Shown: one piece after another, positions 11,312-36,530 of the stretch
Layout: each line of letters opens with the position of its first letter
How positions within the stretch are numbered: the first letter of the stretch is position 1
DNA from: Actinopolymorpha sp. NPDC004070
Lineage (GTDB): Bacteria > Actinomycetota > Actinomycetes > Propionibacteriales > Actinopolymorphaceae
NCBI RefSeq assembly: GCF_040610475.1
Contig: NZ_JBEXMJ010000014.1
Coordinates: forward strand, 113,522 to 177,521
DNA: 64,000 nucleotides
Direction: 5' to 3'
Program-made: the position numbers and the translations under genes
Notes under the pieces: generated by a model
What the model was told of the DNA's origin: nothing
The model's input: only the letters and a program-made list of their open reading frames with translations
Database searches by the model: none

Positions 11312-11325
11312 CGGCATTGGCATAC

Positions 11326-13278: not shown

Positions 13279-13318
13279 GGGTCACGACGACTGATGGCCG
13301 GGATCGGCGAGGCCAGGG

Positions 13319-14150: not shown

Positions 14151-14205
14151 GATGTGGGTGGTGGTGTGGGTGGTGGTGTGGGTGGCGGTGTGGCTGGCGG
14201 TCAGT
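14151..14205. repeat. 12-bp GT-rich tandem repeat
   Basis: About four imperfect copies of GTGTGGGTGGTG in non-coding sequence between two minus-strand genes. Confidence 0.6.
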
Positions 14206-14716: not shown

Positions 14717-14839
14717 ACGAACCTCTCCCAGCGGCGATCCGGGTGGCTCCCTCGCGGGAGGGAACCCGCTCCCTCCCGCGGACCTGCCGACCGGACGTCA
14801 AAGTACGGTGACGTGATCCGCAGAGAACTCCAGGAAGGT

Positions 14840-15958: not shown

Positions 15959-15985
15959 CAGCTGCGACGTGGGAGCCTTGCCCGC

Positions 15986-19277: not shown

Positions 19278-19680
19278 CTTCGGGCACAGGTGAAGTCCTC
19301 CGCGACGTCGGTGCTGCCGTGACCGTCGTAGCGGGCGACCTGCGGGTAGGGGCACAGCGGTCTGGTCCGGACGGCCTTGCCGTCGTCTCCCTTTCCGACT
19401 GCCTCGATGGTCCGCGGCGCGTGACCGTGCTCCACCCAGGACGTCAACGCAGCAGGCGGATCGGCGAGCGGGCCCGATCTGTTCCCCCGGTATGTCGCCG
19501 CAGTGACCCACGCCTGGCGCGAGGAAGAGGCGGTCTGCGTGGCGTGCGTCCCGCCGAACTGGCATACGGCGTCGTAGTAACGAATCACGCCCTGCGGCGG
19601 AATCGTGGGATCGGCGAGGCCTGCCCACAGGACGAGCTTCCCCCCCGGCGCCCCGGAACGTGCTGAGGTGCGCATGTACG
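19270..19680 (-). pseudogene. Tannase/feruloyl esterase C-terminal remnant
   Basis: Minus-strand frames reassemble the end of a tannase-family esterase: GGKLVLWAGLADPTIPPQGV and IRYYDAV in one frame, RLFLAPGVGHCGDIPG in a second, then SWVEHGHAPRTIEAV and RTRPLCPYPQVARYDGHGS back in the first. At least two frameshifts and a missing N-terminal two-thirds (including the nucleophile) make it non-functional. Confidence 0.8.
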
Positions 19681-19744
19681 CGATGCACAACGTGCCATCG
19701 CGATCCGTCACCGTCCCACCACGAAACCACCTTGGAGGTAGGCC

Positions 19745-20620
19745 ATGCTGTCGGAGAAGTCGGCCGCCACGATCGTGTCACCCTTTCCGCCGTCGGCGCG
19801 GCGATCGGCGACATCACTGGTCTCTTCTACGAGAGGATGTTCGCCGCCCACCCCGAAACTGCTCCGTGACCTGTTCAACCGGGGCAACCAGTACGCGATC
19901 GTGCACAAGTATCTCTTCGAGGCGATGGTGGAGGTGCTCGGCGAGGCGATCACGCCCAAGGTCGCGCAGGCATGGAACGAGGTGTACTGGCTGATGGCGA
20001 ACGCGCTGATCGCCATCGAGTCCCGCCTCTACGCCGAGGCCGGCGCCGCCGATGGTGACACCTGGCGGGAGTACCGCGTCGTCGGACGGTACGAGGAGAC
20101 CGCGGACGGGGCGACGTTCCTCGTACGCCCGGTGGACGACGGCGCGCTGCCGCCGGCCCGGCCGTGGCAGTACACGTCTCGGTGCAGGTGGAGCTGCCCG
20201 ACGGCGCGCACCAGATCCGGCAGTACAGCCTGTCCGGGACCGCTCCGGACGCGCTGCGGTTCGCGGTGAAGCGGATCGTCGGTGCCCCGGACGGAGAGGT
20301 TTCGAACTTCCTGCACGACCGCGTGAGCGAGGGCGCCGTGGTACGGGTGAGCGCGCCGTTCGGCGACGTGAGCGTGGACGACGCGGATGGCCCGGTCGTA
20401 CTCGCCTCCGCGGGCATCGGCTGCACTCCCATCATGAGCATGCTCGATCACCTCGCCGCCACGAACTCCACGCGGCAGGTCACCGTCGCCCACGGCGACT
20501 ACTCCCCCGCGAGACACGCGTTCCGCTCCGACCTGGAGCAGCTGGTCGCCAAGCGGGGCAACGCCCAGGGCGCGGTGTGGTACGACGTTCCTGAGGGAGA
20601 GCCGCGCCACCACTGGCAAC
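19745..20620 (+). pseudogene. Flavohaemoprotein (Hmp-type) remnant
   Basis: Frames on the plus strand together spell a flavohaemoglobin (nitric oxide dioxygenase). Globin start: MLSEKSAATIV, then GDITGLFYERMFAAHPE in another frame. A jump follows from LLRDLFNRGNQ straight to YAIVHKYLFEAMVEVLGEA, removing the segment carrying the proximal haem His. The linker is YRVVGRYEET. After a further shift comes the FAD/NAD domain (HQIRQYSLSGTAPDALRF, LASAGIGCTPIMSML). At least three frameshifts plus an internal deletion mean it cannot work. Confidence 0.82.
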
Positions 20621-20765
20621 ACCGCACTGCACGTCGCCCCGCTGGACCTGGCCGACCCGGCTTCCGTAGCGGCATTCACCGCCGCCTGGGACGGGCCGCT
20701 GCACATCCTGGTCGCGAACGCCGAGGTGATGGCCTGTCCCGAGCAGTACATGCCGTCGGGAGTTG
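20620..20765 (+). pseudogene. Short-chain dehydrogenase (SDR) fragment
   Basis: A 48-codon piece reading TALHVAPLDLADPASVAAF then HILVANAEVMACPEQ, the second and fourth beta-strands of a classical SDR (LVNNAG region, here VANAE). The GxxxGxG N-terminus and YxxxK catalytic half are absent. Similarity stops near 20765, the left edge of the AT-richer defence island. Confidence 0.7.
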
Positions 20766-20805
20766 AGTGGCGGGATTTGATCAGGGCAAAACACACTCAA
20801 GTCTT

Positions 20806-21237
20806 CTACAGACGACTGCGAACTACAGCCATGACGCGCTGCGCGGCCTCCTCGATCGCCTCGTGCTCCCACACCCGGACGGGCTCCCACCCTGCAGCCC
20901 TCAGCCTTGTATCCGTCTCACGGTCCCGCGCGGCGTTTCCTTCGATCTTCGCCCGCCAGAACTCCACATTAGTAGCCGGCCACGTACCGTGTATCGGACA
21001 GGCATGCCAGAAGCATCCGTCGACGAAGACCGCGACCCTGGCCTTACGAAAGACGATGTCTGCCTCGCGACGCAGGTCCCGCAAGGGCCTCTGGTGGACC
21101 CGGAAGCGGTAACCCGCGCGATGGAGAACGGACCGCAAAGACCGTTCGACCGCAGTATTACGGCTAGCCTGCCGGCTCATTCGACTGGAAGTCGCGGGCG
21201 TCGTAGGCAGGGAACCGCGCCCCGGCTTGCTGGCCAT
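20806..21237 (-). CDS. vsr: Very short patch repair endonuclease (Vsr family)
   Basis: A 143-residue endonuclease of the Vsr family, which nicks 5' to T in T:G mismatches formed by deamination of 5-methylcytosine. The conserved core is intact: NTAVERSLRSVLHRAGYRFR, ADIVFRKARVAVFVDGCFWH (catalytic Asp in VFVDG; the FWHACPIHG His/Cys cluster binds zinc), then NVEFWRAKIEGNAARD. It diverges from the C5 methyltransferase gene across a 248-bp gap, the usual partnership. First gene of the foreign island. Confidence 0.95.
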   Translation of the reverse strand: MASKPGRGSLPTTPATSSRMSRQASRNTAVERSLRSVLHRAGYRFRVHQRPLRDLRREADIVFRKARVAVFVDGCFWHACPIHGTWPATNVEFWRAKIEGNAARDRETDTRLRAAGWEPVRVWEHEAIEEAAQRVMAVVRSRL

Positions 21238-21485
21238 GGCTCTACGTTAACCACCCATAGAGCCTCGTCGCGGACCAGGCCCGGCAGCGGAGGCCCTTCG
21301 GATCCGCTCGGCACAACTCCTCCTCCTGCCGCTTACCTCAACCGACATGGCCTCGTCGCAGGTCCACCAGGAGGCTAGCGACCGCTCGTCGCACGACGCT
21401 CTCATCGCTGCTTCCACGAACAGCAGACCTCAAGTGCCAGCGAGCCACTGCGGGGCCGTAGGAGCCGCCCCGTTACCATGCATCT
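21238..21485. promoter_or_regulatory. Divergent promoter region, vsr / methyltransferase
   Basis: The 248-bp space must hold both promoters. Close to the vsr start an inverted repeat GGCTCTA (21238-21244) / TAGAGCC (21258-21264) could form a hairpin or operator; a 7-bp match could be chance. No confident -35/-10 pair could be assigned. Confidence 0.4.
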
Positions 21486-22541
21486 GTGGCAGGTGTCCTC
21501 CGCTTGATCGACCTCTTCGCGGGATGCGGTGGGCTGACCCAGGGCTTCACTGCTACCGGCTTGTTCCGTCCTGTAGCGGCTGTGGAGCTCGACGTCCATG
21601 CGGCCGCAACGTACGCGCAAAACTTCGGTGACCACGTCCACGTTGGCGACATCGCCGATTGGGTGCAGGCGTCGTTACCTAAGGCTGAAGTCGTCGTGGG
21701 CGGACCGCCGTGCCAGGGATTCTCGGCCCTCGGAAGACGGAACCCTGCAGACCCCCGAAACGCTATGTGGCGGCACTACGTGGAGACCCTGCGGCGAGTG
21801 CAACCTGCACTCTTCGTGCTGGAGAATGTACCCCAGTTCCTCCGGTCATCAGAGTTCGCCCAATTCGACGCTGAGACGCAGCGTGGCGGCCTCCTGGACC
21901 GATACGCGCTCGAGCCGTTCGTCCTGAACTCAGCGAACTACGGCGTACCGCAAAGCAGGCGCAGAGCTGTGGTAATCGGTCGACTGCGGGAGCTCGACGC
22001 TCTAGGCCAACCGCCCGAGACTAGCACTGCGACCCTCTCCGATGCCTTCCCAGAGTGGCTCCATAGACGCGTCACAGACACCGATCTCCCGAAGAGCACC
22101 GTCGAGTTTCGGGGCCGACAGATCCCAGGCGTCTTCGAAATCCGTGATCTGCACATCACGCGTAGACCGACCGATATCTCGAAAGCCAGATTTCGGGCTA
22201 TTCCTCCCGGTGGCAACCGGAACAACCTTCCCGATCATCTACTGACGCCCTGTTGGCGGAAACATAAGTCGGGCAGCGGTGACGTCATGGGACGACTCGT
22301 GTGGAGCAAGCCGTCGGTTACGATCCGGACTGAATTTTTCAAGCCGGAGAAGGGGCGTTACCTACATCCTGACGAGGATCGCCCCATCACCCACGCCGAG
22401 GCGGCCTTTATCCAGGGCTTCCCACAGGAGGGGTTCAGGTGGTGCGGCAACAAGTCGTCGATCGCTCGACAGATCGGGAACGCTGTACCTCCTCCTCTAG
22501 CTAGCGCAATCGCAAGTCACCTTGCGCAACGCCTCGGCTAG
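21486..22541 (+). CDS. DNA C5-cytosine methyltransferase (DrmMII-like position)
   Basis: A 351-residue C5-MTase. Motif I LIDLFAGCGGLTQGF (6-20), catalytic motif IV GGPPCQGFSALG (about 76-87), motif VI LFVLENVPQF, motif VIII QSRRRAVVIG and motif X IARQIGNAVPPPLA near the C-terminus are all present, so it should be active. The target-recognition region lies at about 190-265. In class 2 DISARM loci a C5-MTase (DrmMII) modifies self DNA. Its 3' end overlaps the convergent drmB stop by four bases. GTG start; third codon positions are markedly more AT-rich than flanking genes. Confidence 0.95.
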   Translation: MAGVLRLIDLFAGCGGLTQGFTATGLFRPVAAVELDVHAAATYAQNFGDHVHVGDIADWVQASLPKAEVVVGGPPCQGFSALGRRNPADPRNAMWRHYVETLRRVQPALFVLENVPQFLRSSEFAQFDAETQRGGLLDRYALEPFVLNSANYGVPQSRRRAVVIGRLRELDALGQPPETSTATLSDAFPEWLHRRVTDTDLPKSTVEFRGRQIPGVFEIRDLHITRRPTDISKARFRAIPPGGNRNNLPDHLLTPCWRKHKSGSGDVMGRLVWSKPSVTIRTEFFKPEKGRYLHPDEDRPITHAEAAFIQGFPQEGFRWCGNKSSIARQIGNAVPPPLASAIASHLAQRLG

Positions 22542-24355
22542 CGGTCACGGGAAGCGATCGACTCCCGCATCTCGGGGAGTACCTGACCGAACAGCCCGGG
22601 AACGTTGCTCCCCCCGAGGACCAACTGTCGGTCAAGCATACGATTACCGGATTCGCACGAAGTTTCGCTGACGAGCGCACAGCCGTGACAGGCGGACAAG
22701 TTCAGACTCGACGATCCCTGGCGATCGCTCTCAATACACACCGGATCGTTCGAACAGACGTCGGCCTCATCTAGCGCGGCGACCAACAACGGAATCAACT
22801 TGTCCGGAGAACCCAGACGCACAAGTCCCCCCAGTGTTCCTTGTGCGTCTCCTGCCGCGGTGTAGATCAGGACCCCCGCCGTGCGATCCGGGCGCTCGGA
22901 ATTGGCGTAGATGCGCTCTTGCAGGGACGCCGACGAATACCCGCTATCAAACGCCAGCCTGCGCATGAGGAGGTGAGAGAAGGTGTGCAACGCAATGAAA
23001 CGCGGTTCGGGCACATCAAGCCTGTGCGCCCACAACGTCTCACTCCTACGCTTGACGAGAATCTCCGCCCGAGCCCGAACCTCTGGTAGCTGTTCCCACT
23101 CCCGTAGGCGAGCCTCGTTAAAACGTAAAAAAATACCTTCACCGAACATTTCAATTGCCGGATACACCGGCATGCGCCTTTGATCCGGGCCCAGATCGGC
23201 CTTGATGAACTCAGCGTCAGCGCTATATCGACGGAACCCTCGCAGTGCGCGCACCTCGCGCACACGCTGCACCTGCCCGAGTCCGATGAGACTACCGGTG
23301 AGCGTCGCTGGCCAATTCGGTTTGGAGTCGATCGTCCATCCGTCGACAACAAAGTCGCTACCGCTCCTGTCACGACCGGCCTCGAGCTTCTTGAGGAACG
23401 CGGCCCACTCGCCGTCCTTCAGGTCCAGCAGCGGTGTCGACTCGGACGCCCCACCGTCCGCCGCGATGGCAAGCACCTCAGCTGCCGTCGCACTAAGTTC
23501 TGTAGCGATCCACTCGGCAACCATCTGGGCTTGGGGCCCGCCGTTGTCATCGACCACTTTGCTGAAATAGATATGGCTCCGGATCTTGTCGGCAAGCTCC
23601 CGAGACCTCGGCCTCTCCTCGGGTATGTCAAGCGCCACAAGTCCTTCGGCGATATAGTTTGCGGTGGCTCCGCGCTGTACGGCTATGAGCCTGTGCTCGC
23701 AGGCGTGCGCTGACGTATGCTCCATCCACGGCTGGGTCCCGTTGCATTTAATTCCATCGCGCTTCAGTGAATCCTCGACAACTAGGTCCGCCAGCGAACG
23801 CCTTCGCCTGCAGGCGTTACATTGGATACTTAGAGCCTTTAGCCCCTCGCCGAGCCCCGCCGATCGAAGAAACCTCAGCTCTGCGTAAGCCTTACAGAAG
23901 CGCACCTCGTCCGCGATTAGCCCGTCATGCCCTCGGTGGGCCCACTTGAACCATGGGATGTCTTGAATGTGACTCCCCTTCTCGCAGACCGCGACGTAAC
24001 GCATCGGAACGAGCATGCCGCCACACTCACACTTGTTGACCCACTTACCCTTGTCCCTGCCGGTCAATTTCGAGACCTTTGAGCAACGTTCGCAGAAACG
24101 CCAGGCCGGAAACCGCCAGTATGTTAGGCCCGGCGTATTCTTAGCTGCTTTCCCGGCGTGGGACGGCGCCTGGCGAAGCACGCCCGCGCCGATGCGCGCC
24201 AAGAGTCGATCGCAGCTAATCTCGGGGGAGAACTTCTTGTCCCACCACGAAGTGTCCGGGGCGATAATTGACTCTCCACGGATATCGACGATTGCTCCGA
24301 CACCGAAGGGCGACAACGTCTCTGAGAGGCGCAAGTCGTGTCTGATTGGTTCCAT
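22538..24355 (-). CDS. drmB: DISARM DrmB-family protein (DUF1998)
   Basis: A 605-residue DrmB homologue. N-terminus RLSETLSPFGVGAIVDIRGE matches the family opening. Cys pairs follow at FCERCSKVSK and NKCECGGMLVP (about 87-115), with further ligand-like Cys at IQCNACRRRR and CNG. The DUF1998 region contains ALHTFSHLLMRRLAFDSGYS, VLIYTAAGDAQGTLGGLV and the C-terminal cluster CHGCALVSETSCE, then NRMLDRQLV. In DISARM, DrmB forms a complex with the DrmA helicase and is required for phage restriction. Its ATG overlaps the drmA stop (TGATG), so the two are coupled. Last gene of the four-gene minus-strand operon. Confidence 0.92.
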   Translation of the reverse strand: MEPIRHDLRLSETLSPFGVGAIVDIRGESIIAPDTSWWDKKFSPEISCDRLLARIGAGVLRQAPSHAGKAAKNTPGLTYWRFPAWRFCERCSKVSKLTGRDKGKWVNKCECGGMLVPMRYVAVCEKGSHIQDIPWFKWAHRGHDGLIADEVRFCKAYAELRFLRSAGLGEGLKALSIQCNACRRRRSLADLVVEDSLKRDGIKCNGTQPWMEHTSAHACEHRLIAVQRGATANYIAEGLVALDIPEERPRSRELADKIRSHIYFSKVVDDNGGPQAQMVAEWIATELSATAAEVLAIAADGGASESTPLLDLKDGEWAAFLKKLEAGRDRSGSDFVVDGWTIDSKPNWPATLTGSLIGLGQVQRVREVRALRGFRRYSADAEFIKADLGPDQRRMPVYPAIEMFGEGIFLRFNEARLREWEQLPEVRARAEILVKRRSETLWAHRLDVPEPRFIALHTFSHLLMRRLAFDSGYSSASLQERIYANSERPDRTAGVLIYTAAGDAQGTLGGLVRLGSPDKLIPLLVAALDEADVCSNDPVCIESDRQGSSSLNLSACHGCALVSETSCESGNRMLDRQLVLGGSNVPGLFGQVLPEMRESIASRDR

Positions 24356-27300
24356 CAGTCGTTCCCTTCCATAGGCTCACGGACCTGCACTGCAACGTTA
24401 GGTTCGACCGATCGCATCGAATCTGCAACCAGCCACCCCTCGCCCGATTGCCCGAATCGCTTCAGTAGCGCCGCGTCGCCACTTCCCCGGTCGTAGCTCA
24501 TTTTGGTCCCGGCGGAGCGCATCGCCTTGGCCCTTCGATCCCAATCGTTCAGCAATGATCGGAGCCGATCGACTGTAGGCACCGCCTCGATTTCATCAGA
24601 ACGGCTCAGTAACCCCTTGAGATCATCGATGACTTTCTCGATCGAGGCCGATAGCTGCCCGTCGTCAAGATCCATACGCCCGGCGTCGTCGTTTTGAGCA
24701 AGACCGCTGAAGGTGTGCCGCACGAGCATCACGAGTGCGCCAGCGAGCGACCGCTCGCGGGAGGCTCTCGACCACGGTGTCACGCTGGTCGGCTCGACCG
24801 TCCGATAAAGAGATTCGTGATAGCTGCGGAAGGTCTCAAAATGCGATCGGTCACGGGCACGGTTCGACCGGAACAGTGTCGTAACGATTCCCCTCACGTC
24901 ACCACGGCCGACACGGCTCGTAGCCTGAATGTACTCGGCCGTCGTCTTAGGTTGCCCGACCATCAACATCAACGCGAGTCGGGGTACGTCGATGCCCACC
25001 GACAGCATGTTGGATGAAAGGACAACGTCGACCGCCTGGTCAGTCTTATCGATGCGCCAACCGAGCTCGCGCAAATCGTTGGGAAGCTCCTCCGGGCCAC
25101 GTCGACTGGTGAGTTCTAGGACGCGATCGGGGCGGACCCGGCGGTATGGCAATCGCAATCGATCCGCGCGCGCCTCAAGCCGCGCGTTCACGTCGTCGAC
25201 TACCAGAGTCCCGGTGCGACCCAGCTCGCGCAGACTGTTGTGGTACATGACAGCCGTCCAGTATGCGTCCCTCGCTGTTCCCTCGCGCTGGATAGAGATT
25301 GCGGGAATCTCGAGTAGCGGAGAGGCTGCTGCGATTACCGCCGAGGCTTGAGACAAGGATTGCGGCATGAGTCCGACATACAGCCGTCCCTTTCCTGATG
25401 CCTCAGGCTGGGAAAAGAAGGTTCGGTCATCGTCGAGGCCTGACGGCGGGTAGAGTGCCACTTCGCGTCCATATAGACCGCGCACTTGCTCATGCGAAGC
25501 CCGGATCGTCGCCGTCGAGGCAATGATCTTAGGCGGAGTGCCTCCGCGGCTCAGTAACTGCTGGATCACCGCGTCAAACACCGCCACGGTGGTCCCCAGC
25601 GGACCCGACAACAGGTGAAGTTCATCTTGGATGATCATAGACGGTTGACAGAACGGGACGTTTAGCCCCAATAGGCGCCCGGCGTCTGGATTGAATTGGA
25701 GCCTTGCGAACTTGTCCACGGTCGCTAGCAGGTACGTCGGCGGATTGTCATATAAGACCTGGTCGACGACAGCGACCGGCAGCTCGCCATTAAATTCGCA
25801 ATGAATGTTCGTGCACCGGATAATGATGTCATTACCAACCTGGCGTATACCGTAATCAGAAGGTTTTGTCGAGTGCCTCTTAGGCACAAGCGAAGCAGCG
25901 CACCATGGGCAGCTCTCGACCTGAAATTGGTTCGCCTCCTGCGGTCGAGCTGCCTTTAGTAGGCGCTTCAGCGCCATGCGGGCTTCGCCGCGCGTGCCGG
26001 GCGTCACCTCGTTGCCCACCCAAAGTCCGATCGAGAACGGAGCCATCCCCTCCGCCCTTGTATCGGAATCACGGCCGGGTCGCCGCAGGATCTCCATCGC
26101 ACAGATCAGAGATGATGCCCGGTGGAACTGCTGGGCCGTCAGAAGGCGCAACGTGTAGCGGGTGATCACCGCCGTGCCACCGCCGCACGTACCGTGGCGG
26201 AGTCTCCGCCGAAAGATCTCGATTGCAGCCAGGCCCAGGTATGCCTCCGTCTTCCCGCCACCCGTGGGGAACCAAATGAGATCGACAAGCTCGCGCTCCG
26301 GGTGCCGATCATCCACGGTCGAGGCCAAAGCTACGAGAATGAATCCAAGCTGGAACGGTCGCCAGGCCGGCTCGGCTACGGCCTCGAGTTCCGTGCCTTG
26401 GTTGATCCGCGCTTGTCGCATCTGCAAGCGCATCGCCGCCATCCCCAACGCGAATGCCGTGCGAAGCTTGCCCTGATCCTCTCCTCGGAGGAGATCCACG
26501 GTCGCCTGCATCCGACTGGAGGCCCTCCGCGACCGCGCCACAATGGTGGCGGCGACGGACGAGTCTCGACCGAAACTCGAAACCCGTCCCTCCTGCTCTG
26601 CGACCCATCTCTCGAACGCGGCCACGAATGTTTCGAGTGCGGCGATCACCAGCTCGGGCTCACTGTCGATACGCGACAGGAAGTCGAGTCGAAGAGCAGT
26701 ACCTTCGGCGCTTCCGGAGGCGAAGGCAACGGTCTCGACGGCAGGGACGACGTACGATGGGACAGGATCGATGAAGACTCTCGTGCATATCCCGTCGACC
26801 ATGTCCCAGTCGGCCGCCATGCCGTGCCCGACAGCGTAGGTCTTCCGATTGCGGTATCGCAGACGAAGCTCAGCCGCCTCGTGGTCGACATCTAGGCTAG
26901 ACGTTGGATCGTATTCGAGGATTCGTCCTCCAGATTTGGGTAGGACGGACAACTCCAACTGATACAAGATCCGGGCGGCATCCACTTTCATATCGCCGCT
27001 AGCGGCCGTGACCACTCTGACGTGAACAGTGACGAGGTACGCATTGCCAAAAGAACGCCAGCGGGACCCGACTTGGAGCGTGACGTCGCCAGCGGTCAGC
27101 TCGCGTGGCGGATCTTCAGCCGAAAGCTCGAGATCTGGATAGGAGAAGGGCGTCCTCTGCCACTGCGGTGGCCCATCGAGGTCTAGCGCTGCATATGTGC
27201 CTCCCGCTATGCTGCACTGCACCGTGGCCCCATCGGTCACAAACGATACTGCTGCTGACGACGGGCGCCAGTCCTCGGCAAGAGGAATACCTGCGTTTCG

Positions 27301-27537
27301 GTCATCCACCTCACCTTCGACGACGTCGGCTTCAACCTCGGGCATAGCGTCGGAGTCAACGTCGGTCAGCCCCTCAGGAGCCGCCTCCGAATAGGATTCG
27401 GGTGGATATAGCATCCCGACGCTGTATTGCAAATTCGGGCGCCCATTGACAATGATCTCGTCGGGACCACCCTCTGGGCCGACGTAGGCCGATCTAAGGT
27501 GTGCAAGGACCTCTTGCTGCTCGCCGGTGAGTGTCAA
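24355..27537 (-). CDS. drmA: DISARM DrmA-family helicase
   Basis: A 1,060-residue superfamily 2 helicase of the DrmA type. Walker A WFPTGGGKTEAYLGL lies near residue 428, the DExH box MIIQDELHLLSGPLG near 640, motif III IIASTATIRAS near 676 and motif VI YIQATSRVGRGDVRG near 870. A Cys insertion (ESCPWCAASL ... CTNIHCEFNG) sits between motifs I and II. The roughly 400-residue N-terminal part is acidic and beta-rich. DrmA translocates on DNA and, with DrmB, recognises incoming phage DNA ends in DISARM. Overlaps the NERD gene upstream (ATGA) and drmB downstream. Confidence 0.93.
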   Translation of the reverse strand: MTLTGEQQEVLAHLRSAYVGPEGGPDEIIVNGRPNLQYSVGMLYPPESYSEAAPEGLTDVDSDAMPEVEADVVEGEVDDRNAGIPLAEDWRPSSAAVSFVTDGATVQCSIAGGTYAALDLDGPPQWQRTPFSYPDLELSAEDPPRELTAGDVTLQVGSRWRSFGNAYLVTVHVRVVTAASGDMKVDAARILYQLELSVLPKSGGRILEYDPTSSLDVDHEAAELRLRYRNRKTYAVGHGMAADWDMVDGICTRVFIDPVPSYVVPAVETVAFASGSAEGTALRLDFLSRIDSEPELVIAALETFVAAFERWVAEQEGRVSSFGRDSSVAATIVARSRRASSRMQATVDLLRGEDQGKLRTAFALGMAAMRLQMRQARINQGTELEAVAEPAWRPFQLGFILVALASTVDDRHPERELVDLIWFPTGGGKTEAYLGLAAIEIFRRRLRHGTCGGGTAVITRYTLRLLTAQQFHRASSLICAMEILRRPGRDSDTRAEGMAPFSIGLWVGNEVTPGTRGEARMALKRLLKAARPQEANQFQVESCPWCAASLVPKRHSTKPSDYGIRQVGNDIIIRCTNIHCEFNGELPVAVVDQVLYDNPPTYLLATVDKFARLQFNPDAGRLLGLNVPFCQPSMIIQDELHLLSGPLGTTVAVFDAVIQQLLSRGGTPPKIIASTATIRASHEQVRGLYGREVALYPPSGLDDDRTFFSQPEASGKGRLYVGLMPQSLSQASAVIAAASPLLEIPAISIQREGTARDAYWTAVMYHNSLRELGRTGTLVVDDVNARLEARADRLRLPYRRVRPDRVLELTSRRGPEELPNDLRELGWRIDKTDQAVDVVLSSNMLSVGIDVPRLALMLMVGQPKTTAEYIQATSRVGRGDVRGIVTTLFRSNRARDRSHFETFRSYHESLYRTVEPTSVTPWSRASRERSLAGALVMLVRHTFSGLAQNDDAGRMDLDDGQLSASIEKVIDDLKGLLSRSDEIEAVPTVDRLRSLLNDWDRRAKAMRSAGTKMSYDRGSGDAALLKRFGQSGEGWLVADSMRSVEPNVAVQVREPMEGND

Positions 27538-29072
27538 AGCGCCCCCATGTTGTTCTGCAACAGCTCTTGTAGCCGCTTCCTGTCGGCTGCCGACACCAAG
27601 ATGTGTAGACCCACACGTGCCCTCGTCGCCGCCACATAGAAAGCCGCCGACCCACCATGATCAAAGACTTCCGGCAAGTTACACACGACGACTCGGTCCG
27701 CCTCGAGCCCCTTGGCGTGCTTGGGGCTTGTGATCATAACGCCACGCTTCGTTGAAACTGGTGCAGCCGACGAAGAAGCATCGATGATCCAAATAGAGCT
27801 AGGCCTCGAACCATCCGCTACGAGCTGATCAGCGATCTTCACGGCGGTGGCGACATCAGCGACGCCGGTAGCGTCGGCCCAGTGGAGGGGTTCGCCATGA
27901 ACGATTCCCGGGTCCCCGACGTCCGCACCTAGATAGCTCTGGACAACGTGGACGATGGGCTTGGTGTTGCGGACGTTCATCGGAAGCTCGAACTCGACGG
28001 CATCCTCAAGGATCAACGCGAAGATATCCTCGTCGAACGCCCCGTCGACGCGCGCTTGATTGTTCGGATCCAGAAACATGCGCCAACGACCGTTTGCGCG
28101 CCCGCCGTCGATGACCGTATCGAGCTTGTCCATGTCCTCTGCCGTCATCAGGTCCTGTGCCTCGTCCACGAAGACGGCCTCGTAGGTCCGTTCCCCCGAC
28201 AGCTCAGCGAAAGGAATGACATCAATAGCTCTGCCAGCAACCAACGTCTTGAAGAAGCGAATGAGGCCCGGGGAGCCGAAGGTGATCAGCACCGAACGGC
28301 CCTGATCTGCCTCCTGCTTCGCGCCCTCAGCCAATGCCAGCGACTTCCCCGTGCCGGCACCGCCGAGAACCAACACGCGCGGGCTGCGAGCCAGACCTTC
28401 GAGGTACTTAGCCTGGCCAGCCGTGGCGCGATTCTGCTCTTCCAGCACAGCGCCACGCTGTGCATCGATGGCAGGAAGGCGCGTGAACTCGCCGTACAGC
28501 CTTGTACGGATGTCGGCGAGCCGCGCGACCTTGGTACCGTGGCTGGGTGTTGGCGCCCTTCTCACTATCTCGTCGAGCGCGCCCGCGACACCCTCAACTG
28601 TCATGTCCGAGCTTGCCAACCAGTGCGACGGATACCAACCGATGGCGCGGTTCAGATCATCGGTATCCGGGGTGATAACCGCATGCTGGTCTGGATACCA
28701 ACCGAGACCGTCCGCCTTTAAGATATCGCGGAGCGCCATCTTTGCACCATTTGCCTGATCCATGGGCGGTTCCTTCAGTTGGAACCATTCCTGACGTCGG
28801 TTTTTAGTCCACCACCTGCCTTCGAGGCATCGAATCCCTCCGCCCTTGACCTCGAATACGACCACCACGCCCTTCCAGAGGACGATGAAATCGGCTTCCG
28901 CCTGCTGCTTGTGTCGATGAGATCGGAGCTTTACCGAGTGAAAGGCAACCGCATTCGGGTCGCCAGTCACTTCGAGCAGCAGGCGTGCAACGGTTTTCTC
29001 AGCGTCGCTCTCGGCCACCTGGAGGATCGACTTGAGGTCCGGCGAAAGTATCACGCGGGGTGCTCCTTCCAT
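27534..29072 (-). CDS. NERD-nuclease / UvrD-like SF1 helicase protein
   Basis: A 512-residue protein. N-terminal NERD (nuclease-related) domain: SDAEKTVARLL near residue 20, then EADFIVLWKGVVVVFEVKGG (58-77) with the D..ExK nuclease core. C-terminal SF1 helicase: Walker A LVLGGAGTGKSLALAEG near 240, Walker B AVFVDEAQDLMT near 300, motif III-like MFLDPNNQ, and the UvrD-type ending SPKHAKGLEADRVVV with YVAATRARVGLHILVS. Likely a DNA-cleaving or processing helicase. It stands where DISARM loci normally carry the PLD-like DrmC nuclease, so it may be the effector nuclease (inference). Overlaps the upstream giant gene by 22 nt. Confidence 0.9.
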   Translation of the reverse strand: MEGAPRVILSPDLKSILQVAESDAEKTVARLLLEVTGDPNAVAFHSVKLRSHRHKQQAEADFIVLWKGVVVVFEVKGGGIRCLEGRWWTKNRRQEWFQLKEPPMDQANGAKMALRDILKADGLGWYPDQHAVITPDTDDLNRAIGWYPSHWLASSDMTVEGVAGALDEIVRRAPTPSHGTKVARLADIRTRLYGEFTRLPAIDAQRGAVLEEQNRATAGQAKYLEGLARSPRVLVLGGAGTGKSLALAEGAKQEADQGRSVLITFGSPGLIRFFKTLVAGRAIDVIPFAELSGERTYEAVFVDEAQDLMTAEDMDKLDTVIDGGRANGRWRMFLDPNNQARVDGAFDEDIFALILEDAVEFELPMNVRNTKPIVHVVQSYLGADVGDPGIVHGEPLHWADATGVADVATAVKIADQLVADGSRPSSIWIIDASSSAAPVSTKRGVMITSPKHAKGLEADRVVVCNLPEVFDHGGSAAFYVAATRARVGLHILVSAADRKRLQELLQNNMGAL

Positions 29073-32000
29073 AGCGGCTCGTACTCACGATAGCCAAGAA
29101 GGTTACTCATATTGCCAAAGTCGTCCGCCATGTCGACGATGAGGCACTCTTCTTTACCGCCGTTGGCTGGGCCACGCAGCCCGCGTCCCGCCATCTGAAT
29201 ATAGGCGCTCGGGCTGAACGTTGGACGCGCAATATAGAGTGCCCGGACACCAGGCGCATCGAAGCCTTGGATAAGCAGATCGCAGTTAGCCAGCACCCGG
29301 ACGGCGCCGTCCTTGAACTTTTGGATCACATCACGGCGTACCTGTCGACTGGTCTGCCCACTCACCGACTCAGCCCGAACGTCCCGGTAGCGCAGCGACG
29401 CGGCGAGGACCTGCGCTGAGAGAACATTCGGAGTGAAGACCAAAATCGGCCAATCATCATCCTGGCTCATGATGTGATCTATGAGGATCGCCATACGCGC
29501 TTGGTCGCGGCCGATACGGTCGAGTACCGCAGGGTTAATACGTCGAAGTCGACTGGCTTCGGCGACCTCGCTGGGGTACAGCCTTACCTTGATACCCGGC
29601 AGCACATCGTGTTTCACACGCGCCAGAACACCGAGCTCGGCAAGCTCATGATATGCATCTCCCTCAAAGGCCTTGATAATCTTGTTTCCGAACCTGTTGG
29701 CGAGCTGTTTGGTGGCGGACTCTGAGGTTCCCTTGAATGGCGTGGCCGACAAGCCAACTAACGGCCTTGCCCATCCGGTGCCTGCAACGCCCAGCCATTG
29801 AAGGATGCTGGTGTACATCGACGAGTTTCCTGCGCGGTGGCCTTCATCGACGATGACGAGTGTCGCCTCACTTAGCCATTCATATTCCGCAGTGCCACGA
29901 ACCACGTTGAGCTTGGCATCAGTTGCGACTATCACGCTGAACTCGGTGTCTGGCTCATGCACGATATTGCTTTCCCAGAGCCTGCCGATCGTCAGCGGAC
30001 GCTCGTCGCCCAGGCCCCGCCACACTAGGCCCCAGGTTTGGACGGCCTGCTCACAGAGCTCTTGGGACTGGGCGATCCACAAGACCGGTCCACGCAACTT
30101 TCCCTCAATGAACAGGCGGAGCACGGTCTCAGAAGCAACGCGCGTTTTACCCGAACCCGTCGGCAATTCAAGCATTGCCTTTTTAGATCGGCCAGCGCCA
30201 CTTTGGGTGATAACCTGCTGCAGCTCCTCACTGATTCTCTGTTGGAACTCATGTAGCGGATTCAGCTTAACCGCCCCGGGCACGATGAATTCGTTGACCT
30301 GCGGCTCGCTGCGACGTCCAGCGTACTCGGCTCCGAAGCCCATCTTCCGAAGCCACGAGATCGTCGACGCGCCACCTCCCCAGGTAGTGGGAACGTCAGG
30401 GAAACCTAATTGCCGGAAATTTTCCTGCAATTGTTTGACAGCCTCCGAGCCATAGACCGTCAGGAATAACCGGGCGACTGATGTATCGTCGCCGACCAAT
30501 CCCTGGACTTGAAGTGCTTGCCATAAGCCGGAGGGCAGTGCCTCACGCAGATCATCAGGCCCAATGTAGACTTCCAATCGCGACTCGTCGTCGGGCGCCG
30601 CAATAGCTTCCTGACGCATAGTCTCAAGGCGGTGATCAACACCTGCCTTGATGACCGTGGCGAGCTCGGCATTGTTAAGGCGCATTTCGAACGCATCATT
30701 TATGAAGCTGAGGACTTTTCTTTCGTCTGCTTCGTTCGCGACAATGAGCCTGCCACCTTCGAGATGCCAGTCGATAGCTTGATCCTCTACCCCTTCTTCG
30801 GTGGTAACCCGCTTCGCTAGGAGCAAGGCGCGCGCCACGGTGGCGTGAGCCACCTTCTCGGCCCAGAGCGTGCTTCGCAGGCCGGGGTAAACGTCAACGA
30901 TCCGTTCGCTATCTTGCCGTCCTTCTACAAGCACGGAAAAGGCAAAGCTCTCCTCGAAGCGGCGACACCCTACAGCTTCGGCTAGGTCCGCGGCTTCCTC
31001 TTCGCTTACGCGCAGATAAGGGCGGTGCCGGTGTGAAAGATACTCCTGCTGCTCGTCGGTAGTCGCGAGATAGACGGCGTTGGGGGGACGGGCCTCGACT
31101 GCCTTTCGGACCCGTGCAGGAATGCTGGGAGGATGGGACTCTGGATACGCGATCCGGTCCGCAGTCAAGATGAAGTCAACGAGCGTGGAGTCGCTGATCG
31201 CTGGCGGAAAGATTTCGGCGCCGAGTGCATCGCGAAGCACTTTCACAGGGACCACCGCCAACTCGTCAGGTAGCTCAAGCGCGTCCGACACGTGGCCTGG
31301 CCCTTTGAAGAGAGGGAGCAAGCCCTCGTACTTCACGAGCGACGGGGCGACAACGTCGGCGGGCGCGCGGAATCCGCGATTGGTCCTGAGTAGGCCTGCG
31401 CGCTCAACTGCCCAACGAACCGGTGATTTCACCGGATAAGTTCGCGAGGTATCGAGATCCTCACAGATCCAGTCGCCGTCCCCCTCTGCAAGGAGCCCGG
31501 CCGTCCATCGTGCCCGTAGTTCATCCGAGGCGTCCGCATCGCGAAGCATGAAGAGCATCGAGAACGGCCCAGGTCCTTCGTACGGGGTCAGATCGATACG
31601 CTCTGTGGGACGCTCGCCGGGCCCGCGGCACTGGTTGAGAGTTGTAAGCACCCATTCTTTGTAGCGGTCGAATGCCGGCTCGTCGTCAGCGGGAAATTTC
31701 CTAACCGGCCCACGGATGACACCGAGTTGGTACGCGACCTCCGGGAGGCATCTCGATCTGTCAAGGGTCCTCGATGCGAAGGACGGGCCAAGCGACTCCG
31801 AGACGTCGAATACTTGGCGCGGAAGGCTCCATCCTCCATCGACCGTCGGCACTCTCACCTTCATCGCATGTGCAGCGAGCGCTTTGGAAGCGGCTAGGAC
31901 CGGGACGCCCATGACCGCGTCCCACAACTTGGTCAGCTCCTGGTCGCTTCCCACTAGCGGAAGCTTCGCGAGTCGGGCGTTCAGAACAGCTAGTGGATCG

Positions 32001-33811
32001 AGGTCTCGGAACCCCGATTTCCGTAGAAGATCATCGACACCCGGCCGTGCTAGAAAGATGGGGTCGACGAAGGTCGCACCCTCGATCTCGATATCGGCAT
32101 CCTGGCTCAGGAAGACTACATCCTTGTCAACGAGTGCTCGCAGCCCCTCGGTGGTTGGGATGACCTTGGCTTGGTCAACACCTTCGATCTTCCGGTGGAG
32201 GGCGCAGACAGTCTTGAAAGCGTTCTCCGAGGAGATCGGGTCGACGCCGTCGGCCCACTCGCGTAACCACGAAAGAAGTCCGCGCTTTGGCATGAGCTCT
32301 AGTGCCCGCCTTGTGTCCCTAGCACTGCCACGATCCCCGCGGTCCAACCCTGCCGTGAAGAGATCCCGCAGGCGCGTGGTGCGTGTCGACGTGGCATAGC
32401 AACGCCAGGACGGGACGTCCTCGCCAGTGTTCGGTGACTCGATCCATGCCTGGTGAATCGACGGTTCGAGAGCGAAAGAGAAGTCCAGTGGGCGCAGGTC
32501 AGTCGCATGCTTCAAGACACCGTTAGCGTCAGGAATTATCCCCTGCTCCGCCGCGAATACTGGGATATGGGCGATCAGGAGCTCATCTCCAAAGCTAAGC
32601 AGTTCACGCCCCCGAGCAGGCATGTAGTCGAGGTGCGCTGCCGGATCTTCAGTCGTCCGTGTACGTGGGAGCAGATCGACGAACATCTTCGATAGTGTCC
32701 GCAAGATTTCGCGATTGTAGTCGTTGTGCAGAAGCGTCGTCCGGTCATCGTTCACACTCCAAGGAGCGTTGAAGAGAGCGGATGCCGAAGTCTCATCCTG
32801 AAGCGGGAAGTAGGCCCAGAACCGTCCTATGCGCTGCCGGGATTGCCGGGCTGGCAGTGCGACCGTTACCTTGACCCGCTTTCGCGAGACCGCCTGTCCG
32901 ACCTGCTCGCGAGCGGCCTCGCTCGGTGAGTGCATCCGATCCTGGACGAACCACTCCTCACCCTCCCCGTCTGGCCGCTCAATCTTGAGGACTCCGTCAC
33001 CGAGGTCGCGCGAGATATGACTAGTCTCGAACGCCTCTGGGCCAATGATTCGGAGCTTCACCTCACGCACGGCGTTTACGAAGAGCAAGAATTCAGGGGA
33101 GAAGCCCCTCATCTCCTCCGTCAGGCGCTTGAGATTCGTCGCATTCGGAAGCTTGACGATAGTGGTTGCCCACTCGGCCAAGTCAGCGAGGATTGGGTCC
33201 GCGGCAAACTCCGCGAGCGGATCGGCAACTGTCGCCGTACGTAGAATCGGGTAGCGCTTCGCGCCGGGCCCAACCTTTGTCAGGGCCTTCCTCGCCTTGA
33301 CGGAGTTAAACTCGAAGGAGATGGATCGGCTGAATACCTGGGGAGAATCGGATACCGCGAGGACGGACTTGAAGCCGAGACCGAACCGACCGATCTCGTC
33401 CCCTCGTTTGGCGCTCAGGTATGCCATCGTGATGGCTCTTAGACCGCTCTCCGAGAATGGTCGGCCAGCATTCGCACAGTACAGAGTCTTTTTGTCGACA
33501 TCGAGTGTGATCTCGACCCTGCCAGCAGTCGGCCCTTGACCGTCTTCCGCTCCGGCCAACGCGTCAGCAGAGTTCTGTACGAGCTCGAGAAGCGTACGGT
33601 TCGCATAACCGCCGGTTCGGATCGACTCCTCATGGTTCGCATGCTCCTCGATGAGGTCGGGATGGATCTCATACGACCTGATCGCGCGATCGAACTGATC
33701 TCCGACCTCCCGCTCGAGACCTGGGTCAGCTGACCACAAGTTGGCCACAGTCACCACTACGAACTCCTCGCCCTCGCGCTGTCTTTGCTCCCAAGGCGGT
33801 GCGTCTGGCAA
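29051..33811 (-). CDS. Sacsin/HSP90-type ATPase fused to SF2 helicase (1,586 aa)
   Basis: A giant protein heading the defence operon. The N-terminal 250 residues are a GHKL ATPase of the sacsin type: N-box LLELVQNSADAL near 79, YCANAGRPFSESGLRAI (DxGxGF-like box with Asn in place of Asp), and G2 box IGRFGLGFKSVLAVSD near 140. About 900 residues of unassigned mostly helical sequence follow. Residues from about 1200 form an SF2 helicase: Walker A ELPTGSGKTRVAS, DExH TLVIVDEGHRAGNS near 1320, motif III VGLSATPF and motif VI YIQMAGRGLRGPANG near 1540. Such fusions suggest ATP-driven conformational sensing coupled to DNA translocation. Function in defence is inferred from position. Confidence 0.88.
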   Translation of the reverse strand: MPDAPPWEQRQREGEEFVVVTVANLWSADPGLEREVGDQFDRAIRSYEIHPDLIEEHANHEESIRTGGYANRTLLELVQNSADALAGAEDGQGPTAGRVEITLDVDKKTLYCANAGRPFSESGLRAITMAYLSAKRGDEIGRFGLGFKSVLAVSDSPQVFSRSISFEFNSVKARKALTKVGPGAKRYPILRTATVADPLAEFAADPILADLAEWATTIVKLPNATNLKRLTEEMRGFSPEFLLFVNAVREVKLRIIGPEAFETSHISRDLGDGVLKIERPDGEGEEWFVQDRMHSPSEAAREQVGQAVSRKRVKVTVALPARQSRQRIGRFWAYFPLQDETSASALFNAPWSVNDDRTTLLHNDYNREILRTLSKMFVDLLPRTRTTEDPAAHLDYMPARGRELLSFGDELLIAHIPVFAAEQGIIPDANGVLKHATDLRPLDFSFALEPSIHQAWIESPNTGEDVPSWRCYATSTRTTRLRDLFTAGLDRGDRGSARDTRRALELMPKRGLLSWLREWADGVDPISSENAFKTVCALHRKIEGVDQAKVIPTTEGLRALVDKDVVFLSQDADIEIEGATFVDPIFLARPGVDDLLRKSGFRDLDPLAVLNARLAKLPLVGSDQELTKLWDAVMGVPVLAASKALAAHAMKVRVPTVDGGWSLPRQVFDVSESLGPSFASRTLDRSRCLPEVAYQLGVIRGPVRKFPADDEPAFDRYKEWVLTTLNQCRGPGERPTERIDLTPYEGPGPFSMLFMLRDADASDELRARWTAGLLAEGDGDWICEDLDTSRTYPVKSPVRWAVERAGLLRTNRGFRAPADVVAPSLVKYEGLLPLFKGPGHVSDALELPDELAVVPVKVLRDALGAEIFPPAISDSTLVDFILTADRIAYPESHPPSIPARVRKAVEARPPNAVYLATTDEQQEYLSHRHRPYLRVSEEEAADLAEAVGCRRFEESFAFSVLVEGRQDSERIVDVYPGLRSTLWAEKVAHATVARALLLAKRVTTEEGVEDQAIDWHLEGGRLIVANEADERKVLSFINDAFEMRLNNAELATVIKAGVDHRLETMRQEAIAAPDDESRLEVYIGPDDLREALPSGLWQALQVQGLVGDDTSVARLFLTVYGSEAVKQLQENFRQLGFPDVPTTWGGGASTISWLRKMGFGAEYAGRRSEPQVNEFIVPGAVKLNPLHEFQQRISEELQQVITQSGAGRSKKAMLELPTGSGKTRVASETVLRLFIEGKLRGPVLWIAQSQELCEQAVQTWGLVWRGLGDERPLTIGRLWESNIVHEPDTEFSVIVATDAKLNVVRGTAEYEWLSEATLVIVDEGHRAGNSSMYTSILQWLGVAGTGWARPLVGLSATPFKGTSESATKQLANRFGNKIIKAFEGDAYHELAELGVLARVKHDVLPGIKVRLYPSEVAEASRLRRINPAVLDRIGRDQARMAILIDHIMSQDDDWPILVFTPNVLSAQVLAASLRYRDVRAESVSGQTSRQVRRDVIQKFKDGAVRVLANCDLLIQGFDAPGVRALYIARPTFSPSAYIQMAGRGLRGPANGGKEECLIVDMADDFGNMSNLLGYREYEPLWKEHPA

Positions 33812-34225
33812 CTACATCGGTCTCGCGCCCCCCGAGGTCATAATTCCGTCCCCCTTGCCCTGGTTGCGCCTCATCGCGCATTTTTTCGGGTCGCCTTGTC
33901 AACGGGTCAACCGAATCTTTGGTTACGGTGCGCGTACGGGGCAGTTGCGTCGGGTACACGGAGGTGTACAGGATGGTGGCTGACCTGCGGGAATAGGGAG
34001 GCCCTTGCAGGGACCCGTGCCTGCGAGATGCTAGCTAGCTGTAGCTAGCGGGACCCCGCTTACTCTGGCCAGCCCCGGCCATATGTGGAGAGGCATGCGC
34101 TAGAACTGGGCCGCCTGAGGGTTCGGCGACCAGCGCGTGCTCTGCTCCGACGGCGGGTCAGGTCGATCCAGCAGCCGTCCTGACGAGGGTGAGCACACCG
34201 GTGAGCCTGAGTACTCGCCCGTCGC
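33812..34225. promoter_or_regulatory. Island right flank / operon upstream region
   Basis: 414 bp without a credible gene. It must contain the promoter of the four-gene defence operon; on the minus strand GGTTGACCCGTTGACA (around 33900) offers -35-like hexamers but no clear -10. A small palindrome GCTAGCTgtAGCTAGC lies at 34034-34049. This stretch is also the right boundary of the foreign island. Confidence 0.4.
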
Positions 34226-34800
34226 TTACAGCGGCGATGTCGAGCCGAACGTCTCAGGTAGTGCGCTAAACGGGGGTAGACGGTTCTTCTCGGGCCACTG
34301 TTCAGACTCGGCGAGGTCCGAGTCGAGCTCGGGGATCAGCGCGTCCACCACTCGAAGCATCTGGGACGGCAGCGCGTTGTCGTCCAGTTCGCCGTGGACG
34401 AGTAACAGCCTGCCGCGCAGACCCGCGGCCACCTGCGTGTTGTCGACATCAGCCCATCTCGCGACTGTGCCCAGATAGAGGTGCGACCAAGCCGGGATGT
34501 AGTGCCGCCAGTTGTGGTTGCCGGAGATGGACACGCCGACGCGGTAGGAGGTCCGGACGGGTGAACATCGCGCGAGCCGACGCGAACCCGCCGCCGAATA
34601 GGCCGTACACCTCCACTTGCCCGGCATCCGTACAGGGATGACGCTCGGCGAGCTGGCGAATCGCCATCACGTGGTCCTCCACGTGCCAGGCCTCGTCGGC
34701 GTCGCCGTACGCTGCGTCGTGAAACGCCTTGCCCCTGCCCGGCGTCCCGCGTCCGTCATGCGCGACGACCGCGAAGCCGAGTGCCGCCGACCCTAGGAAC
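34226..34800 (-). pseudogene. S9 prolyl oligopeptidase/DPP-IV C-terminal remnant
   Basis: Frames on the minus strand give HDGRGTPGRGKAFHDAAYGD, VEDHVMAIRQLAERHP, then VEVYGLFGGGFASARAMFTRPD; a frameshift follows, then YRVGVSISGNHNWRHYIPAW and GRLLLVHGELDDNALPSQML. This is the catalytic half of an S9 peptidase, but the GxSGG serine is Phe (GLFGG) and the frame is broken, so it is dead. Its truncation marks the island's right side. Confidence 0.8.
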
Positions 34801-34968
34801 CGGGCGGAAACCACCGCTCGCTCTCAGGCCCCGGTTTCTGATACTCGCTTCGCTCGGACTTGTCGGCCCACCGGCCGTCGACCTCGCGTCGTTGCTTCAG
34901 GTACCCCACCACCAGCAGCAGCACGGCGAGTCCACGACGATCAGGATCCAGACCACCACCGCACTCAT
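34797..34968 (-). pseudogene. Small membrane protein with frameshift
   Basis: ATG 34966-34968 opens MSAVVVWILIVV; after a one-base shift the sequence continues LAVLLLVVGYLKQRREVDGR and WADKSERSEYQKPG. Together this would be a roughly 57-residue single-helix protein with a charged tail. The frameshift makes it a probable pseudogene. Confidence 0.4.
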
Positions 34969-34986
34969 GCCCACACGGTGACACCG

Positions 34987-35020
34987 GGCATGCCCGCGGT
35001 CCACAGACCGCGGGCATGCC
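34987..35020. terminator. Strong hairpin downstream of gdhA
   Basis: A perfect 15-bp stem GGCATGCCCGCGGTC / GACCGCGGGCATGCC with a four-base loop, 27 bp beyond the gdhA stop. No T-run; likely an intrinsic terminator of the actinomycete type. Confidence 0.7.
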
Positions 35021-35046
35021 TCCCAGGGTGCTCTTTCGTACGCGGA

Positions 35047-36492
<1,446 letters not shown>

Positions 36493-36530
36493 CTACCTGG
36501 CCCCCGCAGCCCGTCCGTGAGCGAACCGGG

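What the first reader, a model, noticed from the sequence alone, without database searches (positions are those of the whole stretch)
20806..33811. DISARM-like defence island with a non-canonical gene set
Seen: Vsr, C5-MTase, DrmB, DrmA, a NERD/SF1-helicase and a 1,586-aa sacsin-ATPase/SF2 helicase, the last four in one overlapping minus-strand operon. Known: class 2 DISARM couples a C5-MTase with drmA-drmB-drmC. Inferred: the PLD-type DrmC is replaced by two large proteins not in the canonical set, giving a variant or related system with two or three DNA motors and a chaperone-like ATPase. The tight overlaps imply stoichiometric co-expression.
Basis: partly seen in the sequence, partly recalled or inferred. 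Interest (0 to 1): 0.92.

Follow-up and report, generated by a model that had tools for sequence, protein, structure and literature searches.

The report
Four-gene relative of DISARM phage defence
This is a complete four-gene cousin of a known bacterial virus-defence system (DISARM), in which the usual cutting enzyme is missing and two other DNA-handling machines are built into the same operon; the same gene order recurs in other actinobacteria, so it looks like a real variant that can be tested directly.

Summary
Window 20806-33811 encodes Vsr, a C5-methyltransferase (C5MT) and a tight minus-strand operon: GHKL/sacsin-RadD-like helicase ("SacHel"), NERD-nuclease/SF1 helicase, DrmA, DrmB. The DrmC profiles used found none in window or genome. 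Gene order is strongly conserved: SacHel alone, searched in 297 genomes of one order, gave 41 places in 40 genomes, and 41 of 41 read SacHel-SF1-DrmA-DrmB. In 6 the SF1 gene is the NERD type (group A, the window's); in 35 it is UvrD-like (group B). Their DrmA proteins form two clades; holding both together is rejected. A phylum-wide sample is sparser: 4 of 396 genomes, one of them without adjacent DrmAB. The island lies in a defence hotspot where congeners carry a group B system or a type IV restriction enzyme. My searches of the open-licence library showed no description of this set. Best reading: DISARM-related restriction-like defence; DrmAB engages single-stranded invader DNA, SacHel gates it, NERD-SF1 cuts, C5MT marks self. 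Mechanism inferred. New variant of a known kind.

The parts
20806..21237 (-). Vsr endonuclease (143 aa); accessory gene, likely repair of T:G mismatches from deaminated 5-methylcytosine
   Evidence: Pfam Vsr, NCBIfam vsr over cut-off; a Vsr lies in 7 of 14 group A and 22 of 49 group B stretches; 88% identical Vsr beside the group B system of a congener
21486..22541 (+). C5 cytosine DNA methyltransferase (351 aa), convergent with drmB
   Evidence: Pfam DNA_methylase; PADLOC best DruM2 313 bits, best DrmMII 141.5; a C5MT in 13 of 14 group A and 30 of 49 group B stretches
22538..24355 (-). DrmB: DUF1998/MZB canopy protein (605 aa)
   Evidence: NCBIfam DrmB_fam 412.6 bits over 240; Pfam MZB; PDB 7s9v_B 6e-64; 22 Cys/His positions kept in at least 13 of 14 group A sequences
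24355..27537 (-). DrmA: YprA-family SF2 helicase (1060 aa) with an acidic stretch at the trigger-loop position (about residues 42-90)
   Evidence: PADLOC 1e-189; PDB 7s9v_A 6e-142, residues 17-626 on chain 147-820; three helicase motifs kept in 14 of 14 group A
27534..29072 (-). NERD-type PD-(D/E)xK nuclease fused to an SF1 helicase (512 aa as listed; likely start GTG near 29054)
   Evidence: Pfam NERD over cut-off; D61, E74-x-K76, Walker A and DExx invariant in 32 aligned sequences; AlphaFold2 model pLDDT 83.7, nearest SLFN11/14, Dna2, UvrD
29051..33811 (-). SacHel: N-terminal GHKL/sacsin-like ATPase with transducer, long middle region, C-terminal RadD-like SF2 helicase (1586 aa as listed; likely start near 33754)
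   Evidence: NCBIfam sacsin N-terminal domain over cut-off, ResIII/Helicase_C, PDB RadD 1e-16; GHKL motif positions invariant in 40 sequences; model of residues 24-1180, pLDDT 86.5, SMCHD1/topo VI/Hsp90 fold in its first 400 residues
19745..20601 (+). Left edge: remnant of a globin/NAD-binding (flavohemoprotein-type) gene, with an internal gap and cut off at 20601
   Evidence: Alignment to congeners in which the gene is intact at 395 aa (aligned parts 19659-19891 and 19884-20601)
35047..36414 (-). Right flank: Glu/Leu/Phe/Val dehydrogenase, conserved gene that marks the hotspot
   Evidence: Pfam ELFV_dehydrog; 90-96% identical in five congeners

Best explanation
An apparently chromosomal, horizontally acquired, DISARM-related restriction-like defence system. 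Shown: gene content, intact catalytic motifs, overlapping genes, conserved order, hotspot location. Inferred steps: the C5 methyltransferase marks host DNA and Vsr repairs the deamination errors this causes; DrmAB stays autoinhibited by an acidic loop until it loads on exposed single-stranded or 5'-overhang invader DNA, as shown for Serratia DrmAB; SacHel, a GHKL ATPase fused to a RadD-like translocase, acts as an ATP-gated clamp and motor on that DNA; the Dna2/Schlafen-like NERD-SF1 protein follows and cuts the unwound strand, doing the job that DrmC is thought to do.
For: Synteny: 41 of 41 SacHel places in 297 genomes carry SacHel-SF1-DrmA-DrmB on one strand, in 29 single-linkage clusters at 80% identity. 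Overlapping junctions. Nuclease, GHKL and helicase motifs kept. A stretch with 15 acidic and 1 basic residue in 45, at the Serratia trigger-loop position (PMC9142583, passages). C5MT in 13 of 14 group A stretches. No DrmC in the window and at 63 of 64 SacHel loci. Hotspot shared with a group B system and a type IV restriction enzyme. Nuclease-helicase model nearest to SLFN11/14 and Dna2.
Against: No experiment. No nuclease was recognised in the three group B SF1 proteins scanned and L046 and L047 have no SF1 gene, so cutting by a NERD protein cannot be the common core step. The methyltransferase is outside the operon, varies in place and family, and was not seen in 19 of 49 group B stretches. 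One SacHel (L041) sits with a UvrD-like and a DruE-like gene instead of DrmAB. The acidic stretch could be anchored by motif in only 6 of 14 group A DrmA sequences; 5 of these 6 are strongly acidic (12-15 acidic, 1-2 basic), one is not. The usual aspartate of the GHKL DxGxG box (recalled) reads N91-x-G93 here. The middle third of SacHel was not assigned to any fold.
Confidence: 0.6

Rival explanations
1. The operon is DISARM in all but a loose accessory set: DrmAB does the work and SacHel and the SF1 gene are optional helpers or a second, separate system parked next to DrmAB.
For: DrmA and DrmB are clear homologues of the Serratia pair. L046 and L047 keep SacHel-DrmA-DrmB without the SF1 gene. 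Another DrmAB pair in the same class (L054) is followed by Mza-like genes.
Against: 41 of 41 SacHel places have the SF1 gene and DrmAB in the same order; junctions overlap; the window's DrmA scores 794 bits against NCBI's DISARM DrmA equivalog model, cut-off 950.
Confidence: 0.2
2. SacHel plus SF1 is the real effector, a MORC/paraMORC-like restriction system, and DrmAB is the recruited sensor: GHKL ATPase, SF2 helicase, C5MT and Vsr are parts of the restriction systems described by Iyer and colleagues in 2008.
Confidence: 0.15
3. A DNA repair or recombination cluster rather than defence: YprA, RadD, Dna2-like and Vsr relatives act in repair.
For: The C-terminal helicase of SacHel is RadD-like; Vsr is a repair enzyme; MrfA, a YprA relative, repairs mitomycin damage (PMC12458937, part read).
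Against: Patchy presence (40 of 297 genomes; 4 of 396), insertion in a site that holds restriction-type systems in congeners, C5MT association, DrmAB as DISARM marker proteins.
Confidence: 0.05

Closest known systems
DISARM class 1 and class 2 (Ofir 2018, recalled, not held; PMC9142583 and PMC9252829, passages seen)
   Same: Split DrmA/DrmB helicase pair, DNA methyltransferase nearby, restriction-type setting, acidic stretch at the trigger-loop position.
   Different: No DrmC found; no DrmD or DrmMI among the frames scanned; DrmA below NCBI's DISARM cut-offs and, by local alignment, lacking about 130 N-terminal residues of Serratia DrmA; adds SacHel and an SF1 gene in fixed order.
ARMADA, BRIGADE, TALON (PMC12458937, parts 1-4 of 8 read)
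   Same: YprA-family helicase with extra helicases; TALON also has a NERD nuclease.
   Different: DrmA and DrmB are separate genes; no PglX or BrxHII match among the eight frames scanned; TBP and TPR-CSD were not sought. The words Hsp90, GHKL and sacsin do not occur in that paper's main text.
Druantia (DruE systems)
   Same: YprA relative with DUF1998; the window's C5MT is closest to a Druantia methylase profile; one SacHel relative lies beside a DruE-like gene.
   Different: No DruE-type single-chain helicase among the window frames scanned.
MORC/paraMORC restriction systems (PMC2292703, passages seen)
   Same: GHKL ATPase, SF2 helicase, cytosine methylase and Vsr together.
Tiamat TmtA (PADLOC label; system name recalled)
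   Same: N-terminal region of SacHel matches TmtA profiles (5e-57, residues 32-388).
   Different: Best match covers only 9-358 of 1538 profile positions; the rest is a different middle plus RadD-like helicase.

Membership tests
DISARM | DrmA-family SF2 helicase | tested here: met
   PADLOC DrmA 1e-189; 7s9v_A 6e-142
DISARM | DrmA over NCBI's curated cut-off for DISARM DrmA | tested here: not met
   NF038325 794.1 bits, cut-off 950; NF038326 542.4, cut-off 999
DISARM | Separate DrmB with DUF1998/MZB | tested here: met
   NF038324 412.6 bits over 240; 7s9v_B 6e-64
DISARM | DrmC, PLD-type nuclease | tested here: not met
   None in the window at E<=10 with a DrmC model that hits 13 of 14 class 1-like loci (three of them its seeds); PADLOC DrmC PDLC02588 0 matches in the window's genome, control rings in 9 of 14. 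PMC9142583 notes that DrmC is dispensable and often missing
DISARM class 2 | DrmE | tested here: inconclusive
   PDLC02637 0 of 13 and 0 of 266 genomes, but no control rang; no DrmE match among eight window frames
DISARM class 2 | DrmMII cytosine methyltransferase | tested here: inconclusive
   A C5MT is present; best DrmMII profile 141.5 bits, DruM2 313 bits
DISARM class 1 | DrmD and DrmMI beside DrmAB | tested here: not met
   No match among the eight open frames scanned from 20806 to 39365; the rest of the genome was not searched for them
DISARM | Autoinhibitory trigger loop and 5'-overhang DNA preference | tested here: inconclusive
   Acidic stretch at the aligned position in the window; anchored in 6 of 14 group A sequences, acidic in 5; DNA preference not testable
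DISARM | Restriction of phages | not testable with these tools
   Needs plating assays
ARMADA | Unsplit YprA helicase with BrxHII-like and PglX-like genes | tested here: not met
   DrmA and DrmB are split; no BrxHII or PglX match among eight frames
Druantia | Single-chain DruE | tested here: not met
   No DruE match among eight window frames scanned
MORC/paraMORC restriction systems | GHKL ATPase with SF2 helicase, cytosine methylase and Vsr | tested here: met
MORC/paraMORC restriction systems | Membership of the MORC or paraMORC1-5 families proper | not tested
   [not shown]
Tiamat | Full-length TmtA | tested here: not met
   Best profile matched over 9-358 of 1538 positions

The most novel reading that the evidence does not exclude
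SacHel plus an SF1 partner is a portable two-gene cassette that has joined YprA-family helicases at least twice as split DrmAB (groups A and B) and once as a DruE-like single chain, making a separate class of GHKL-gated, multi-motor DNA-targeting immunity that links MORC-type restriction systems with the DISARM/Druantia world.
Probability: 0.4. Interest if true: 0.78.

Novelty: new variant of a known kind. Interest (0 to 1): 0.64.

Why it matters
How DISARM destroys DNA when DrmC is dispensable is open (PMC9142583, passages). Here is a recurrent relative (40 of 297 genomes of one order at E<=1e-100, the centre genome included; 4 of 396 in a phylum-wide sample, the window's own included) in which a candidate nuclease-helicase and a GHKL-helicase are locked into the operon, so the DrmAB-to-nuclease hand-off can be tested genetically. 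It also ties GHKL/MORC-type restriction to YprA-family helicases, and gives annotation tools a new system definition: PADLOC 2.0.0 returned no DISARM component for SacHel or for the NERD-SF1 protein.

Tried and rejected
Chance neighbourhood: rejected by 41 of 41 synteny. A hidden DrmC: not found in the window or genome with the profiles used. In one search, 10 of 13 genomes had some DrmC-profile match at E<=0.001, most of them weak and in longer frames; the strong ones were G1010 (2.6e-97, a contig other than that of L007, judged by its length), G761 (5.5e-96, its class 1-like DISARM) and G1007 (1.2e-23, on the contig of L004 about 24 kb beyond the end of the operon). ARMADA membership: rejected (PMC12458937). 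My early reading of the 1047-aa gene at the same site in congener G765 as a lone sacsin-like protein (in a note) was wrong: it is a PLD-ResIII-DUF3427 type IV restriction enzyme. My note calling the SF1 gene of L041 NERD+UvrD rests on a PADLOC profile name; Pfam sees UvrD only. The DrmE searches gave no answer, since no control rang. A scan of viral contigs gave one weak helicase match, phages none, plasmids one partial. SacHel middle region: modelled, but the fold comparison covered mainly model residues 25-483, so nothing is claimed about the rest; families not listed there are not excluded. One search returned places under other handles and was not counted. The promoter and terminator scan found no more than the shuffles.
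Full report
What is there. Six open genes lie between 20806 and 33811. On the minus strand, in order of transcription, come SacHel (a GHKL/sacsin-like ATPase fused to a RadD-like SF2 helicase), a NERD-nuclease/SF1-helicase, DrmA and DrmB. The junctions are GTGA, TTGA and TGATG, so each gene overlaps the next by a few bases. A C5 cytosine methyltransferase runs towards DrmB on the plus strand and meets it tail to tail, and Vsr lies divergently behind it. Domain evidence: Pfam, PADLOC, NCBIfam, PDB sequences. Pfam's own SACS model stays just under its cut-off; NCBIfam's sacsin N-terminal model is over its cut-off.

Is DrmC or DrmE hidden nearby? A DrmC model built from three class 1-like proteins finds DrmC in 13 of 14 class 1-like loci (three are its seeds), in none of 26 other loci, and in 1 of 64 SacHel loci. 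That one hit is at the edge of L085, where the DrmC of the neighbouring class 1-like system of the same genome lies. The 64,000-base window has no hit at E<=10. PADLOC's DrmC profile finds none in the window's genome while ringing in 9 of 14 control genomes. For DrmE nothing rang anywhere, so its absence is not shown.

Is the gene set conserved? A genome-collection scan with SacHel gave seven loci from Serinicoccus, three Nonomuraea, Subtercola, a Cellulomonadaceae bacterium and a Micrococcus MAG, all seven with the same four genes in the same order. Those hits were near relatives, so I made a fairer test. SacHel alone was searched in 297 genomes of the order of one Nonomuraea (G1008, itself counted): 41 places in 40 genomes at E<=1e-100. 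All 41 neighbourhoods were held or fetched (30 new held earlier) and typed with profiles: 41 of 41 read SacHel-SF1-DrmA-DrmB on one strand. These 41 SacHel proteins form 39 clusters at 95%, 29 at 80% and 4 at 60% identity by single linkage. In 6 the SF1 gene is the window's NERD type (group A). In 35 it is a UvrD/GajB-like helicase (group B); three representatives were scanned (L074, L071, L040), and neither Pfam nor PADLOC showed a NERD or other nuclease domain in them.

A thinner, phylum-wide sample gives the other side: at E<=1e-100 only 4 of 396 genomes had SacHel, the window's own included. Two of the other three (G177, G182) have DrmA and DrmB beside it; the third (G278, L041) does not, and has a UvrD-like gene and a DruE-like 2238-aa helicase instead. 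Across all 64 loci with SacHel that I hold, 14 of which were found through DrmA and are therefore biased, 12 have the NERD type, 49 the UvrD type (L040 with a NERD-type gene in addition), two (L046, L047) have no SF1 gene, and one (L041) has no DrmAB beside it. A C5MT was seen in 13 of 14 group A and 30 of 49 group B stretches, Vsr in 7 of 14 and 22 of 49; most stretches are about 20 kb and some are cut by contig ends.

In the protein database 1589 proteins match SacHel at E<=1e-30 (7990 candidates scored) and 502 match the NERD-SF1 protein at E<=1e-20 (7999 scored). Only the best 120 of each were seen, and the totals may include more distant helicases. Of 119 typed lengths each, 39 longest-contig lengths are shared between the two lists, which fits adjacency but does not prove it.

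One origin or two? A DrmA tree of 70 rows places the 11 window-type rows in one clade (SH-aLRT 100) beside DrmA proteins without SacHel, and the group B rows in another clade (100, 23 rows) beside class 1-like DISARM. Holding all SacHel-linked DrmA together costs 98 log-likelihood units, AU p 9e-76, in a thinned set of 58 rows. Either SacHel joined DrmAB twice or an old association was lost several times. No class 2 DISARM reference could be included.

Where it sits. The island cuts off a globin/NAD-binding gene (intact at 395 aa in congeners G755 and G765; here with an internal gap and ending at 20601) and stops before a conserved glutamate-type dehydrogenase (35047-36414). At the same site congener G757 has a group B SacHel-UvrD-DrmA-DrmB system with HNH, C5MT and Vsr genes (Vsr 88% identical to the window's). 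G765 has a type IV restriction enzyme. G755 has only about 2.2 kb between the two flank genes, with a 487-aa frame that has a weak type IV profile match (51.7 bits) and no Pfam match. In G768, G762 and the more distant G753 the dehydrogenase was found, but the left flank did not align beside it, and no SacHel relative was seen there in G768 and G762. This swapping is the behaviour of a defence hotspot and the best indirect evidence that the operon is immunity.

Known or new? PADLOC defines DISARM type I by DrmA, B, C, D and MI and type II by DrmA, B, C, E and MII (PMC9252829, passages seen); as far as tested, this locus meets neither. The YprA survey (PMC12458937, parts 1-4 of 8 read) does not use the words Hsp90, GHKL or sacsin in its main text. 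No paper in the open-licence library holds both DISARM and sacsin. In the other searches no listed title or abstract start describes this set, but some lists were capped (20 of 22, 20 of 53, 20 of 780, 25 of 108). Supplements and most subscription papers, including Ofir 2018, were not readable. Further passages or abstracts seen without this set: PMC8011034, PMC3710099, PMC13192584, PMC13316683 (abstract and outline). I therefore call it a new variant of a known kind, with defence as the function at about 0.9 and the stated mechanism at about 0.6.

Noticed in passing
L041 (G278:C3:1-17000), 2470-16354: SacHel relative, UvrD-like SF1 (885 aa) and a DruE-like 2238-aa helicase in a row: the SacHel-SF1 pair joined to a Druantia-type YprA helicase.
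   Followed up: partly
L052, L053, L054, L059, L061: DrmA-DrmB followed, in the one locus scanned (L054), by a MzaA/MzaB-like sigma-domain protein and an AIPR (MzaE-like) gene and a C5MT; the others look alike by gene sizes only.
   Followed up: partly
L057, L078, L079, L080, L081, L088: NERD-SF1-DrmA-DrmB without SacHel, with Vsr, C5MT or both nearby; in L078 preceded by a 507-aa protein with no Pfam or PADLOC match.
   Followed up: partly
L046, L047: Group A relatives in which SacHel overlaps DrmA directly and the NERD-SF1 gene is missing.
   Followed up: partly
[not shown]
   Followed up: partly
window 19745-20796: Globin/NAD-binding (flavohemoprotein-type) gene broken at the island edge; what follows to 20796 looks by eye like a piece of a short-chain dehydrogenase.
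   Followed up: partly
L084, 1-1813 (G757): In a congener the same left-flank gene is also interrupted, with a 208-base stretch present twice around a 342-aa open frame.
   Followed up: no
L085 and L102 (G761:C2): A class 1-like DISARM with DrmC next to a group B SacHel system in one genome.
   Followed up: partly
window 36531-39365: 944-aa protein joining an MFS transporter to carboxypeptidase-regulatory/SdrD-like repeats, next to the dehydrogenase.
   Followed up: no
G000:C2:260889-261365 (L144, 6157-9411): A second sacsin-like ATPase gene (1107-aa frame) elsewhere in the same genome, with no DrmA or DrmB match in the fetched stretch.
   Followed up: no
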